Shown here: positions 20,335-24,274 of the stretch, piece by piece | Layout: the number at the start of each line of letters is the position of its first letter | How positions within the stretch are numbered: position 1 is the first letter of the stretch | DNA from: Gammaproteobacteria bacterium | GTDB taxonomy: Bacteria; Pseudomonadota; Gammaproteobacteria; Steroidobacterales; Steroidobacteraceae | DNA: 64,000 bases | Reading direction: 5' to 3' | Assembly (NCBI GenBank): GCA_027459765.1 | Contig: DAIDHD010000067.1 | Coordinates: forward strand, 1 to 64,000 | Notes under the pieces: model-generated | Told to the model about the DNA's origin: nothing | The model's database searches: none | Seen by the model: only the letters and a program-made list of their open reading frames with translations | Translations under genes and position numbers: made by a program

Positions 20335-21153
20335 ATGCTGAAGTATCCCCACATCAATCCGGTGGCCATCTCCATCGGGCCGCTGCGCGTGCACTGGTAC
20401 GGCATCATGTATCTGGTCGGGTTCGTCTCGGCCTGGGCTTTGGCGCGCAGCCGTGCGCGCAGGCCGGGCTCCACCTGGACCCTGCTGGACATCGACGATC
20501 TCATTTTCTACTGCGCCATCGGCGTGATCGTCGGCGGCCGTCTTGGCTGGTGCCTGGTGTACGGGCGGGACGTGATCGCGCAGAACTTCCTCAACGTCTT
20601 TCACATCTGGGACGGCGGCATGTCCTTCCACGGCGGCCTCACCGGGGTGATCGTGGCCGCGATGGTGTTCGCGCGCATGAAGGGCAAGCGCATCCCGGAC
20701 GTGTTCGACTTCCTCGCGCCGCTGCCGGGCATCGGCCTGATGGCGGGCCGGCTCGGGAACTTCATCAACGGCGAGCTGTGGGGCCGGCCGACGGACCTGC
20801 CCTGGGGCTTCGGGGTTCCCGACGAGACCGGGCGCCTGGTGGCGCGCCACCCGTCGCAGCTCTACGAGGCGACGCTCGAGGGACTGGTGCTGTTCAGCAT
20901 CCTCTGGTGGTACACGCGCAAGCCGCGGCCGCGACTCGCGCCGACGGGGCTGTTCCTGCTGCTGTACGGCTGCGCGCGCTTCACGGTCGAGTGGGTGCGC
21001 CTGCCGGACGCCAACATCGGCTACCTCGTCGGTGATTGGCTGACCATGGGCATGCTCCTCACCACGCCGATGATCTTCATCGGGGTCGCGGTGATGGCCT
21101 ACGCCTACTGGCGCGACCAGCCGAGCGGCAACCTCGCCGCCGCGAACGCCTGA
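20335..21153 (+). CDS. lgt: Phosphatidylglycerol:prolipoprotein diacylglyceryl transferase
   Basis: Lgt attaches diacylglycerol to the lipobox cysteine of prolipoproteins in the inner membrane, the first step of lipoprotein maturation. The 272-residue polytopic protein has [22 protein letters not shown] and the signature [13 protein letters not shown]. It begins 4 nt after rlmI. It would process the lipoproteins encoded in this window (cytochrome c, RlpA and the 28-kb lipoprotein). Confidence 0.97.
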
Positions 21154-21170: not shown

Positions 21171-22016
21171 GTGCCGGGTCTGGACCAGGGCTACCTCGCG
21201 CTGCTGCGCGACATCCTCGAGACGGGGGTGCGCAAGGCGGACCGCACCGGCACCGGCACACTGTCCGTGTTCGGTCGCTTCCTGCGGCACGATCTGGCGC
21301 AGGGATTTCCGCTGCTCACCACCAAACGTCTGCACGTCAAGTCGATACTGTACGAGTTGCTCTGGTTCCTGCGCGGCGACACCAACGTTCGTTTCCTGCG
21401 CGAGCACGGCGTGTCGATCTGGGACGAGTGGGCGACGCCCGACGGTGAACTCGGACCCGTATACGGTGCGCAGTGGCGTCGCTGGCGTGGAGCCGACGGC
21501 CGTGAACACGACCAGGTGAGCGCGCTCGTCGAGGGTATCAAGCGCAAGCCCGACAGCCGTCGGCACCTCATCAACGCCTGGAACGTGGCGGAACTGCCCG
21601 ACGAGGCGTTGGCGCCGGAGGCGAACGCCGCGGCGGGACGCATGGCGTTGCCGCCGTGCCACGTGATGTACCAGTTCTACGTGGCGAATGGCCGGCTGTC
21701 CTGCCTGATGACCATGCGCAGCGTGGACGTGTTCCTGGGGCTGCCGTACAACTGTGCCTCGACCGCATTCCTCACCACCATGATTGCGCAGCAGTGCGAA
21801 TTGCAGCCCGGCGAGGTGGTGTTTTCGCTCGGCGACACGCATCTGTACTCGAACCACCTCGACCAGGCACGCCTGCAGGTCACGCGCGAGCCGCGCCCGG
21901 CACCGCGTCTCGCGCTGCTGCGCAAGCCGGCGAGCGTGTTCGACTACCAGTTCGAAGATTTCCGGATCGACGACTACGATCCGCACCCGCACATCGCGGC
22001 GCCGATCGCCAAGTGA
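21171..22016 (+). CDS. thyA: Thymidylate synthase
   Basis: ThyA converts dUMP and methylene-THF to dTMP and dihydrofolate. The 281-residue sequence has [37 protein letters not shown], the catalytic cysteine in [10 protein letters not shown], and [15 protein letters not shown]. The GTG at 21171 is the best start, preceded by GAGCGGAG. The dihydrofolate it produces is reduced by FolA, encoded 1.8 kb downstream. Confidence 0.96.
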
Positions 22017-22077: not shown

Positions 22078-22746
22078 ATGCCCCGAAGCGCGCGCCGGTC
22101 CCCGTTGGTCGAAGTCCGGCATTCACAGGTCCACGGCTACGGGGTGTTCGCCCTGCGGCGCATCCGCAAGGGCACCACGGTGATGGAATACGTGGGCGAG
22201 CGCGTCAGCCACGCGGAGGCCGACGCGCGCTACGAGCACAAGGACGCACGCGACAACCACACCTTCCTGTTCACGGTGGACTCGCGCACGGTGATCGACG
22301 GTGGCGTCGACGGCAACGACGCGCGCTACATCAATCACGGCTGCGACCCGAACTGCGAGAGCACCACCCGCGACCGGCGCGTGTTCATCGAGGCGATCCG
22401 CACCATCGAGCCGGGCGAGGAGTTGTGCTACGACTATCAGATCCAGCGCGACGACGACGATCCGGCGGATGTGGACGAGATCTTCGCGTGTCGCTGCGGG
22501 GCGACGGGCTGCCGCGGGAGCATGCTCGAACCGCGCAAACCCGTCCGCGCGAAGAAAAAGCGGGTGATCCGCGCCGCCGGATCGCGCAGCCGCGTCGCCA
22601 CCGGCGCATCGAAGCGGCGCGCCGCGCCGGCCAAGGCGCACCAGGGCGCGGCACGCAAGGGCGGGCAGGGCGCGGCCAAGGGCGGGCGAGCGGCGAAGAA
22701 GGGCGGGCGGGCTGCGAAGAAGGGCGGGCGCAAGCCGCGCCGCTGA
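22078..22746 (+). CDS. SET-domain protein lysine methyltransferase with histone-H1-like basic tail
   Basis: Residues 1-150 form a SET domain: HGYGVFALRRIRKGT, the SAM/knot motif YINHGCDPNCES, ELCYDYQ, and a post-SET zinc motif CRCGATGCRG. These residues suggest an active lysine N-methyltransferase. The last 65-70 residues are almost only Lys, Arg, Ala and Gly with short repeats of the type KKGGRAA, like bacterial H1-type DNA-binding tails. The tail could bind DNA or RNA, or be a substrate. The product has 222 residues. It sits between thyA and a LysR gene; its target is unknown. Confidence 0.87.
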   Translation: MPRSARRSPLVEVRHSQVHGYGVFALRRIRKGTTVMEYVGERVSHAEADARYEHKDARDNHTFLFTVDSRTVIDGGVDGNDARYINHGCDPNCESTTRDRRVFIEAIRTIEPGEELCYDYQIQRDDDDPADVDEIFACRCGATGCRGSMLEPRKPVRAKKKRVIRAAGSRSRVATGASKRRAAPAKAHQGAARKGGQGAAKGGRAAKKGGRAAKKGGRKPRR

Positions 22747-22859: not shown

Positions 22860-23774
22860 ATGCGCTTGCCGTCTCTCAAGTTCCTCAAGACCTTCCAGGT
22901 CGCCGCGAAGCTCAAGAGCTTCAAGGCCGCTGCGGAGGAGCTGTTCATCACGCCCTCGGCGGTGAGCCACCAGATCAAGGCGCTGGAGGAGCAACTCGGC
23001 GTGGCGCTGTTCGAGCGCGGCGTGCGCACGCTCTCGCTCACCGACGCAGGCGCGCACTACCTCGAGCACATCGACGACATCTTCGCCAAGCTCGAGTCGG
23101 TCACCGAGCAATTGCAGCAGCGCTACGGGCGCACCATCATCCGCCTGAACGTGCCGCCGTTCTTCGCCAACGAACTGCTGCTGCCGCGGCTCGCGACCTT
23201 CTCGCAGTCGCGCGAGGAAACCGACATCCGCATCGAGACCACGTTCGCCACCCCCAAGGCGCATCCGTCGGACGCGGACCTCTCGATCGTGGTCGGGGCC
23301 GGACCGTGGGAGGGACTCACGGTGCACGAGCTGTTCGCGCAGAGCTTCATCGCGGCCTGCTCGCCCGGCTTTCTCGCCGAGAATCCGATCCGCCACTACG
23401 CCGACCTGAACGGCAAGACGCTGCTGTTGCACGAGGAGCGGCGCGATGCCTGGGAGCGCTGGGCGCAGGGTCTCGGCATCGAACCCATCAAGCCCAACCG
23501 CCTGGTGCGGCTCGATACCATGTCGGCGGTGGTGCTGGCGGCAGAACAGGGCGTCGGCGTGGCGCTCGTGCCGTCGCGGTTGTGCGCGGATCGGTTCGCC
23601 GAAGGCGGTCTCGTGAAGCTGTTCGACGCCGAGCTCACCACCCACGAAAGCTACGTGCTGCTACAGCGGCCCGAGGACACCGGTCGCGAGGAGCTGCAGG
23701 AGCTGGTGCGCTGGATCCTCGACGTCTCGCGCAGCCCGGTGTCGCGCGCCCCGACCTCGCGTGTGCCGGCGTGA
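22860..23774 (+). CDS. LysR-family transcriptional regulator, GcvA-like
   Basis: The 304-residue protein has an N-terminal winged helix-turn-helix (SLKFLKTFQVAAKLKSFKAA, TPSAVSHQIKALEEQLGVAL) and a periplasmic-binding-like effector domain. The start of the helix-turn-helix most resembles the GcvA branch of the family. The ATG at 22860 matches the family N-terminus; the frame is open upstream. It overlaps folA by GTGA. Control of folA, glycine or one-carbon genes is a guess from position. Confidence 0.88.
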   Translation: MRLPSLKFLKTFQVAAKLKSFKAAAEELFITPSAVSHQIKALEEQLGVALFERGVRTLSLTDAGAHYLEHIDDIFAKLESVTEQLQQRYGRTIIRLNVPPFFANELLLPRLATFSQSREETDIRIETTFATPKAHPSDADLSIVVGAGPWEGLTVHELFAQSFIAACSPGFLAENPIRHYADLNGKTLLLHEERRDAWERWAQGLGIEPIKPNRLVRLDTMSAVVLAAEQGVGVALVPSRLCADRFAEGGLVKLFDAELTTHESYVLLQRPEDTGREELQELVRWILDVSRSPVSRAPTSRVPA

Positions 23775-24274
23775 GCGCGGCCCGGCCGACGCTCGAGTTC
23801 GTGGTGGCGGTGGCCGAGAACGACGTCATCGGCCGCGCCAACGGCCTGCCCTGGCGGTTGCCGGCGGACTTGAAGCACTTCAAGTCGCTCACACTCGGCA
23901 AGCCCGTGCTCATGGGCCGCAAGACCTACCAGTCGATCGGCAAGGCGCTGCCCGGGCGCACCAACATCGTGCTCACCCGGTCCGGTGACTTCGCGCCGCC
24001 GGATGCGCGCGTGGCGCGCGATCTCGCCACGGCCTACGCCGCGGCCGAGGGCGCGGCGGCGCTTATGGTGATCGGCGGCGCCGAGGTGTACGCGCAGTGC
24101 CTCGCGTTCGCGCAACGGATCCACCTCACCCTGGTGCACACTCAGGTGTCGGATGGTGATGCGTTCTTCGCGGGCTGGCGCGGCGCCGAGTGGCGCGAGC
24201 GCGAACGAGTGCGGCGCGAGGCGGACGAGAGCAACGCGCACGCGATGAGCTTCGTGACGCTGGAGCGGGTGTAG
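23771..24274 (+). CDS. folA: Dihydrofolate reductase
   Basis: FolA reduces dihydrofolate to tetrahydrofolate with NADPH and is the trimethoprim target. The 167-residue product shows VAVAENDVIGRANGLPWRLP, DLKHFKSLTLGKPVLMGRKT and VIGGAEVYAQ, all canonical. The start is a GTG overlapping the LysR stop, so translation of folA is probably coupled to the regulator. The gene marks the left edge of the accessory island. Confidence 0.96.
   Translation: MSAARPTLEFVVAVAENDVIGRANGLPWRLPADLKHFKSLTLGKPVLMGRKTYQSIGKALPGRTNIVLTRSGDFAPPDARVARDLATAYAAAEGAAALMVIGGAEVYAQCLAFAQRIHLTLVHTQVSDGDAFFAGWRGAEWRERERVRREADESNAHAMSFVTLERV

What the first reader, a model, noticed from the sequence alone, without database searches (positions are those of the whole stretch)
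22078..22746. SET-domain methyltransferase fused to a histone-H1-like tail
Residues 1-150 form a complete SET plus post-SET zinc motif with NHxCDPN and ELCYDY intact, so catalysis is likely. The last 65-70 residues are Lys/Ala/Gly/Arg repeats like bacterial H1-type nucleoid tails. One polypeptide therefore combines a eukaryotic-type lysine methyltransferase with a likely DNA- or RNA-binding, lysine-rich tail that may itself be methylated. It lies between thyA and lysR-folA.
Basis: partly seen in the sequence, partly recalled or inferred. Interest (0 to 1): 0.62.

Follow-up and report, generated by a model that had tools for sequence, protein, structure and literature searches.

The report
Bacterial SET methyltransferase with basic tail
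This bacterium carries an apparently intact lysine-methylating enzyme, built like those that mark histones in our own cells, with a strongly positively charged tail; relatives that carry the gene show the same design, usually beside genes for making DNA, so it may modify the bacterium's own DNA- or RNA-bound proteins.

Summary
Window 22078-22746 (+) encodes 222 aa: a complete SET + post-SET domain (Pfam E 4e-27; AlphaFold core pLDDT 92; VIA Z 19.4 to MLL3) with catalytic and zinc residues intact, then a 72-residue Lys/Arg/Ala/Gly tail (net +26 on a core of net -6). It is the only SET match in this genome. The tail is no oddity of the strain: all 77 complete tails among 80 named relatives (apparently Steroidobacteraceae) are basic (14-125 aa, net +4 to +40), though they cannot be aligned. 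Three of 77 lack lysine, so positive charge, not a methyl-acceptor lysine, is what is kept. Likeness to histone H1 is compositional; no H1 model matched. The gene follows thyA in 78 of 80 loci. More distant relatives sit directly behind gyrB (4 of 4 loci of one lineage) or divergent from topB (11 of 11 of another), noticed post hoc; 14 of 29 showed neither. Best reading: a cell-own lysine methyltransferase held on DNA or RNA by its tail, perhaps also automethylating, as reported for chlamydial NUE. Substrate, activity and binding are untested. New variant of a known kind; the secreted-effector reading is disfavoured.

The parts
22078..22527 (+). SET + post-SET catalytic domain (residues 1-150) of the putative protein-lysine methyltransferase
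   Evidence: Pfam PF00856 E 4.4e-27; 136 PDB sequences at E<=1e-3, best Set1/MLL-type; AlphaFold2 core pLDDT 91.8 and VIA Z 19.4 to MLL3; of 13 active-site and Zn positions checked, 11 invariant in 57 of 57 homologues, G20 in 56, D119 in 51 (6 N)
22528..22743 (+). Lys/Arg/Ala/Gly C-terminal tail (residues 151-222), net +26
   Evidence: composition; basic tail in 77 of 77 complete relatives; no Pfam match at E<=10
22656..22730 (+). 21-bp tandem repeat, 3.6 copies, inside the tail (KGGRAAK-type units): a likely source of its length
   Evidence: Tandem Repeats Finder; TRF arrays of score 30 or more (a low threshold) in 38 of 77 relatives' tails
21171..22016 (+). thyA, thymidylate synthase; upstream neighbour (61 bp to the SET start), the conserved partner
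   Evidence: NCBIfam NF002497 over cut-off; thyA upstream in 78 of 80 relatives
20335..21153 (+). lgt, prolipoprotein diacylglyceryl transferase; upstream in the conserved gene row
   Evidence: NCBIfam TIGR00544 over cut-off
22860..23774 (+). GcvA-like LysR regulator; a similar gene lies in the 3-kb flanks of 10 of 80 relatives (in one of them upstream)
   Evidence: NCBIfam best match PRK11139 GcvA, 262 bits against a cut-off of 288
23765..24274 (+). folA-like dihydrofolate reductase, downstream; overlaps lysR
   Evidence: several dihydrofolate reductase models, each below its cut-off; folA within the 3-kb flank in 66 of 80 relatives

Best explanation
The gene encodes an endogenous, non-secreted protein-lysine methyltransferase of the Set1/MLL structural type. 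The folded SET/post-SET domain binds S-adenosylmethionine and transfers methyl to lysine; with Tyr at the Phe/Tyr-switch position (residue 118; rule recalled) mono-methylation is the likelier product. The disordered Lys/Arg-rich tail holds the enzyme by charge, without sequence specificity, on nucleic acid (nucleoid DNA, or RNA), which places the acidic catalytic domain next to substrates bound there, most likely nucleoid or other DNA-metabolism proteins. Where the tail has lysines, methylation of the tail by the enzyme itself is a plausible secondary effect that could tune binding. Shown here: intact domain and its conservation, universality of the charged tail in the sampled family members, gene neighbourhood. 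Inferred: activity, monomethylation, nucleic-acid binding, substrate, absence of secretion.
For: Catalytic and zinc residues intact; NHxC and post-SET CxCx4C(R/K)G in 79 of 79 parsed relatives, and a Y(D/N)Y motif in all 79 (73 by script pattern, the other 6 read as EMTYDY). High-confidence core fold, Z 19.4, rmsd 1.9 A over 140 residues, 35% identity to MLL3 solved with an H3 peptide. Tail charge kept while tail sequence and length are not; net charge per residue shows no correlation with locus GC (rho 0.005, p 0.97, n 77). Gene behind thyA in 78 of 80 loci, estimated gaps -13 to 116 bp (n 75). Relatives in other lineages abut gyrB (4 of 4) or topB (11 of 11). Precedents: cpnSET of C. pneumoniae is reported to methylate the bacterium's own H1-like Hc1 (PMC3980110 section 6); a fragment of the H1-like tail of AlgP binds DNA (PMC9239181, passages). 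Only SET match in the genome.
Against: No substrate identified; no activity or binding measured. Tails as short as 14 residues exist in the family, and of 29 more distant relatives only 8 have 20 or more residues after the core, so a long tail is not needed for the basic function. The gene is dispensable: G016 and G029 keep thyA and folA and have no match anywhere in the genome; G003 keeps the pair with only a weak partial match elsewhere. The topoisomerase neighbours were noticed afterwards; 14 of 29 distant loci showed neither. NUE, unlike cpnSET, did not methylate Hc1 (PMC2904774). No HC2-type H1 protein was found in the own genome as a candidate substrate. Basic tails can bind RNA, polyphosphate or acidic proteins as well as DNA.
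Confidence: 0.48

Rival explanations
1. The tail is chiefly an intramolecular substrate: the SET domain methylates tail lysines in cis or trans, and this switches its own activity or binding, as reported for chlamydial NUE.
For: NUE automethylates at K209 and/or K210 in a basic C-terminal stretch (KHRKKR at position 206) and has weaker histone activity when its last 12 residues are cut (PMC2904774, passages). The window's tail offers 13 lysines.
Against: 3 of 77 complete tails have no lysine and 4 have one, yet all 77 contain Arg and are net positive; a conserved methyl-acceptor role would keep lysine.
Confidence: 0.22
2. A secreted nucleomodulin that enters a eukaryotic (protist) host nucleus, with the basic tail as nuclear localisation signal.
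For: Characterised bacterial SET proteins are mostly described as effectors (NUE, RomA/LegAS4, BtSET, BaSET; PMC3980110 section 6, PMC7819608 and PMC10117894 passages). A weak match to the Dot/Icm effector model AnkI/LegAS4 lies in the SET part only, 47 bits against a cut-off of 550. A VirB4-type ATPase is over cut-off in the own genome and in 9 of 21 genomes.
Against: Behind thyA in 78 of 80 loci and present in 33 of 37 family genomes. No type III secretin over its cut-off in 21 of 21 genomes, 13 of them of the window's genus (all 21 have weaker matches, presumably other secretins). VirB4 alone fits conjugation (recalled). Relatives abut gyrB or topB.
Confidence: 0.07
3. The tail binds polyphosphate, RNA/ribosomes or acidic proteins rather than the nucleoid, and the substrates are ribosomal or translation proteins.
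For: Charge alone does not specify the polymer; the H1-like protein AlgP localises to polyP granules (PMC9239181, passages).
Against: Neighbouring genes point to DNA synthesis and topology, though only indirectly.
Confidence: 0.17
4. The tail is a neutral by-product of GC-rich repeat slippage at the gene's end without function.
For: TRF arrays (score 30 or more) in 38 of 77 tails and a 21-bp repeat in the window; length varies from 14 to 125.
Against: Acidic residues are depleted (median 0.025 against 0.073 expected) and K+R nearly doubled (0.385 against 0.21 expected), with net charge at least +4 in 77 of 77; neighbouring proteins in the same loci show nothing like it in the median.
Confidence: 0.06

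Closest known systems
SET1/MLL-type SET + post-SET lysine methyltransferases (MLL3, MLL1, yeast Set1)
   Same: Fold and motifs: GxG, NHxCxPN, ELxYDY, four-Cys post-SET site; VIA Z up to 19.4; sequence E down to 1.8e-25
   Different: A small stand-alone bacterial protein. MLL/Set1 structures are of RbBP5/Ash2L or COMPASS complexes on histone H3 (titles); partner homologues were not searched for here. Carries a long basic tail after post-SET
Chlamydial SET proteins NUE (CT737) / cpnSET
   Same: Small bacterial SET protein with a basic C-terminal stretch; NUE automethylates there, cpnSET is reported to methylate the H1-like Hc1 (PMC2904774 passages, PMC3980110 section 6)
   Different: NUE is a type-III-secreted nuclear effector; here no type III secretin over cut-off, a fixed locus behind thyA, and a longer tail. 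No direct sequence comparison was made (effectors were not fetched)
Burkholderiales/Xanthomonas 'SET domain-containing protein-lysine N-methyltransferase'
   Same: 42-50% identical over the SET core (29 unnamed-genome loci; named plasmid records at 45-49%); same catalytic and zinc residues
   Different: 21 of 29 sampled relatives have under 20 residues after the core; other gene neighbours (topB, gyrB, histidine kinase).
Bacterial histone H1-like proteins (HC2 family, AlgP, PhaF)
   Same: Lys/Ala-rich, repeat-built, low-complexity tail
   Different: No HC2 match in the own genome at E<=0.1 and no Pfam match of the tail; no KPAA repeats; rich in Arg and Gly as well

Membership tests
SET-domain protein-lysine methyltransferase with post-SET | Pfam SET domain above gathering score | tested here: met
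   95.0 bits against 22.4
SET-domain protein-lysine methyltransferase with post-SET | NHxC and YDY active-site motifs; SAM-binding GxG | tested here: met
   present in the window protein; N86, H87, Y118 and Y120 invariant in 57 of 57, G20 in 56 of 57
SET-domain protein-lysine methyltransferase with post-SET | Post-SET zinc cysteines CxCx4C plus the Cys of NHxC | tested here: met
   C89, C138, C140 and C145 invariant in 57 of 57; zinc itself not tested
SET-domain protein-lysine methyltransferase with post-SET | SET fold | tested here: met
   AF2 core pLDDT 91.8; VIA Z 19.4, rmsd 1.9 A over 140 residues to 7w6l_C
SET-domain protein-lysine methyltransferase with post-SET | Methyl transfer to lysine | not testable with these tools
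   needs a biochemical assay
Bacterial histone H1-like (HC2/AlgP-type) protein | Match to the HC2 model | tested here: not met
   no Pfam match of the tail at E<=10; HC2 not found in the own genome at E<=0.1
Bacterial histone H1-like (HC2/AlgP-type) protein | Lys/Ala-rich, low-complexity, net-positive tail | tested here: met
   composition
Bacterial histone H1-like (HC2/AlgP-type) protein | DNA binding or condensation | not testable with these tools
   needs EMSA or microscopy
Secreted SET nucleomodulin | Dedicated injectisome (T3SS) in the organism | tested here: not met
   type_III_yscC over cut-off in 0 of 21 genomes including the own one, which has 4 weaker matches; one model only; own genome 94.9% complete
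Secreted SET nucleomodulin | T4SS ATPase in the organism | tested here: inconclusive
   VirB4 over cut-off in the own genome, which fits conjugation as well
Secreted SET nucleomodulin | Full match to the AnkI/LegAS4 equivalog model | tested here: not met
   47.4 bits against 550, SET part only

The most novel reading that the evidence does not exclude
A true bacterial chromatin-writer: a Set1/MLL-type methyltransferase that is itself a nucleoid-binding protein through its H1-like tail, expressed with DNA-precursor or topoisomerase genes (thyA, gyrB, topB in three lineages), and that methylates the cell's own nucleoid or topology proteins, and where possible its own tail, to tune DNA packing.
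Probability: 0.2. Interest if true: 0.82.

Novelty: new variant of a known kind. Interest (0 to 1): 0.45.

Why it matters
Characterised bacterial SET enzymes are mostly described as weapons against host histones, and a 2022 review (PMC10117894, passages) says it is still under discussion whether bacteria modify their own chromatin proteins. A SET enzyme found in most sampled genomes of a family thought to be free-living (recalled), lying close behind a DNA-synthesis gene and carrying a conserved positive tail, gives that question a concrete, testable protein. If the tail holds it on the nucleoid, the enzyme combines in one small protein what eukaryotes spread over large complexes.

Tried and rejected
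Tried without result: AlphaFold of the full protein on 27 close homologues gave a useless model (pLDDT 50); the core on 57 diverse homologues worked. Searching the own genome for another protein with a similar tail gave one further match at E 0.9, on the strand opposite a dihydrolipoamide-acyltransferase-like ORF (my reading of its letters, no family search), taken as chance. HC2-type H1 proteins as candidate substrates: none in the own genome; 8 of 30 genomes at E<=0.1, 3 of 30 over cut-off, all 3 in other families of the order without a SET match; so co-occurrence gives no support for 'SET methylates an H1 protein'. Neighbour ORFs of distant relatives: of 10 ORFs scanned, 4 had family matches (2 topB, a histidine kinase, an old-yellow-enzyme type oxidoreductase); of 10 (SufBD, acyl-CoA dehydrogenase); the rest none, some probably not genes.

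Considered and rejected: recent transfer from a eukaryote (fixed locus through the family; 29 more distant bacterial relatives plus L037 form a group set apart by a branch of length 1.39, support 89/99; but no eukaryotic rows were in the tree, so this is indirect); plasmid- or phage-borne origin (no phage match; 50 plasmid records, all under 60% identical); neutral repeat tail (see rivals); automethylation as the conserved purpose (Lys-free tails).

Dropped rows and limits: of the 80 named loci (best 80 of 188) L118 could not be parsed and L062 and L070 run off their contigs, leaving 77 tails. L002-L031 overlap L061-L140 (same contigs in several cases), so only the 80 are counted. L004 and L013 (contig edges), L019 (near L020) and the matches without a locus were left out of A1, whose start codons are provisional. 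A2 took 26 of the 80 loci, 28 of the 29 distant ones, L171 and L037. The 29 distant loci are those given for the 49 non-own matches; the other 20, among them second copies in three of the topB genomes, were not read. Their flanks are 1.5 kb or less, and 'no topoisomerase' means no tblastn match to the two query proteins. In the class scan 77 of 274 genomes have a SET match; most of the 29 further loci seen there are other SET subfamilies. The tree has few columns for its rows and long branches meet. The gaps thyA-SET are estimates from alignment. The SET ORF fell out of the 39-gene background set, apparently by its overlap filter.

Papers: PMC3980110 sections 4 and 6; passages of PMC2904774, PMC7819608, PMC10117894 and PMC9239181; all other papers search listings only. 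The role of Tyr118 as Phe/Tyr switch, the RlmI name, the Kup name, the free-living habit of Steroidobacteraceae and the meaning of VirB4 are recalled, from no call.

Full report
What is there. The ORF at 22078-22746 (+) is real and complete: 222 aa from ATG. Residues 1-150 are a SET + post-SET domain (Pfam SET, 95 bits against a 22.4 cut-off). 136 PDB sequences match at E<=1e-3, the best being yeast Set1 and MLL-type enzymes. A model of the core on 57 diverse homologues has mean pLDDT 91.8, and VIA-align gives Z 19.4, rmsd 1.9 A over 140 residues and 35% identity to MLL3 solved with an H3 peptide; a first model of the full protein failed (pLDDT 50). The active-site residues N86, H87, Y118 and Y120 and the four presumed zinc cysteines C89, C138, C140 and C145 are invariant in 57 of 57 aligned sequences. 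It is the only SET match in the genome (genome about 95% complete).

The tail. Residues 151-222 carry 13 K, 14 R, 17 A and 12 G; net +26, pI 12.0, on a core of pI 5.5 and net -6. The DNA of the tail holds a 21-bp repeat in 3.6 copies. Relatives: a scan of one genome for each of 84,980 species gave 188 relatives, of which the best 80 were kept; 8 of the 80 record titles say Steroidobacteraceae and the rest name only Gammaproteobacteria, Proteobacteria or Pseudomonadota. Of the 80, 79 could be parsed and 77 have complete tails. All 77 are basic: 14-125 residues (median 41), K+R 0.19-0.61 (median 0.385), net charge +4 to +40 (median +15), D+E median 0.025. An i.i.d.-nucleotide expectation from the tails' own composition is K+R 0.21 and D+E 0.073 (medians). 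The last 41 residues of Lgt, ThyA, FolA and an RlmI-like protein in the same loci have median K+R 0.05, 0.12, 0.10 and 0.12 (n 72, 75, 62, 70; highest single value 0.195); the weakest SET tail, L128 at 0.19, overlaps that range. Tail sequences do not align, and 38 of 77 hold tandem repeats at a low score threshold. Net charge per residue does not follow locus GC (rho 0.005, p 0.97); K/(K+R) falls weakly with GC (rho -0.20, p 0.08; n 77).

What the tail's conservation says. Three of 77 tails contain no lysine and four contain one; none lacks arginine. A tail kept as a methyl-acceptor would have to keep lysine; a tail kept for electrostatic binding need not. I therefore read binding as the conserved function, and automethylation as possible where lysines exist. 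It has a precedent: NUE automethylates at K209 and/or K210 in its basic C-terminal stretch, and losing the last 12 residues weakens histone methylation (PMC2904774, passages). That H1-like repeat tails bind DNA is reported for AlgP (PMC9239181, passages). The tail gave no Pfam match at E up to 10, so 'H1-like' describes composition, not descent.

Distribution and inheritance. In 60 genomes of the order (own included), 33 have a match; all 33 lie among the 37 genomes of the window's family and none among 23 genomes of other families (one of the 33, G003, is a weak partial match at 45% identity). thyA lies upstream on the same strand in 78 of 80 named loci (of the two others, L071 is cut 89 bp upstream and L114 is a real exception); folA is within the 3-kb flank in 66 and a similar LysR gene in 10. 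The estimated thyA-SET gap is -13 to 116 bp, median 14, in 75 loci; the downstream side varies (folA directly, lysR-folA, or about 1.9 kb with a potassium-transporter-like ORF in some). Three relatives keep thyA and folA without the SET gene between them (L172 of G003, L173 of G016, L174 of G029; L173 still has the lysR); G016 and G029 have no match anywhere, so the gene is dispensable. In a tree of 116 cores, 29 more distant relatives with L037 form a group set apart from the family by a branch of 1.39 (support 89/99; few columns and long branches).

More distant relatives. A profile search of 398 genomes of the phylum found matches in 44. I read 29 loci (L142-L170) of the 49 non-own matches. 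Of these 29, 8 have 20 or more residues after the core, several of them Lys-rich (L143, L144, L145, L155, L160, L165), and 21 have fewer. On the same measure 63 of 77 family members have at least 20 (lengths minus two). So a long basic tail is usual in this family and occasional elsewhere. SET proteins as such are common in the class (77 of 274 genomes), but many of those seen are other subfamilies.

An unexpected neighbourhood. In all 11 loci read from one unnamed family (f122) the SET gene is divergent from and adjacent to topB, DNA topoisomerase III, with 74-197 bp between the match starts (tblastn; two of the eleven confirmed by NCBIfam as partial ORFs). In all 4 small-genome loci of another (f193: L158, L163, L164, L166) it starts a few bases after the gyrB stop (three confirmed by NCBIfam as partial ORFs). 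The other 14 of 29 loci show no match to those two topoisomerases in flanks of 1.5 kb or less; five of them (f193 with large genomes) have a histidine kinase. With thyA (and often folA) in the window's family, three lineages place this SET gene beside genes of DNA synthesis or topology. This was noticed after the fact and I have no census to test it, but it speaks for a cell-own role near DNA and against an effector.

Effector reading. No type III secretin over cut-off in 21 of 21 genomes, though all have weaker secretin matches; a VirB4 is over cut-off in the own genome, which fits conjugation; the AnkI/LegAS4 effector model matches only in the SET part at 47 of 550 bits. Phages: no match. 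Plasmids: 50 records, all under 60% identity, mostly Paraburkholderia (29) and Caballeronia (12).

Mechanism, with steps marked. Intact enzyme fold: shown by homology and model. Lysine methylation: inferred from the family. Mono-methylation from Tyr118: inferred, recalled rule. Tail binds nucleic acid: inferred from charge conservation and from precedents. Substrate among nucleoid or DNA-metabolism proteins: inferred from gene neighbours and from the cpnSET-Hc1 report (PMC3980110 section 6), weak; against it, NUE did not methylate Hc1 (PMC2904774) and no HC2 protein was found here. Automethylation: possible, not conserved.

Novelty. The SET enzyme is a known kind, and basic C-termini are known in chlamydial SET proteins. 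I found no description of this family-wide tail architecture, its thyA linkage or the gyrB/topB linkage of the relatives in the listings of nine full-text searches and the five papers opened; the library lacks most subscription papers. I rate it a new variant of a known kind. Reviews describe characterised bacterial SET proteins chiefly as host-directed (PMC3980110 section 6, PMC7819608 and PMC10117894 passages), while PMC10117894 calls modification of bacterial chromatin proteins still under discussion; this locus offers a clean test.

Noticed in passing
L144, L146, L148, L151, L152, L155, L159-L162, L165 (flank of SET gene): In 11 of 11 loci read from one unnamed family the SET relative is divergent from topB (DNA topoisomerase III), 74-197 bp between match starts.
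   Followed up: partly
L158, L163, L164, L166 around 1455-1510: In 4 of 4 small-genome loci the near-tailless SET relative starts a few bases after the gyrB stop codon; its N-terminus is Lys-rich instead.
   Followed up: partly
L050:81-1859: A different SET subfamily (30% identical to the window's) lies divergent from a thyA-folA pair in another family of the class: coincidence or a second association with thyA.
   Followed up: no
L172, L173, L174: Relatives with thyA and folA (L173 also lysR) but no SET gene between them: natural absences at the same locus.
   Followed up: partly
L085, L088, L104 downstream of SET: About 1.9 kb separates SET and folA in many relatives; in some the ORF there reads like a Kup-type potassium transporter (name by eye, no family search).
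   Followed up: no
G037, G040, G046 (L180, L179, L181): HC2-type H1-like proteins over cut-off in 3 of 30 genomes, all in other families of the order without a SET match; in the 19 genomes of the window's genus none is over cut-off and two have weak matches.
   Followed up: no
G026:C138:14577-15221 and G026:C293:16736-17335: One relative shows two matches to the SET protein on different contigs (56% and 51% identical to the window's).
   Followed up: no
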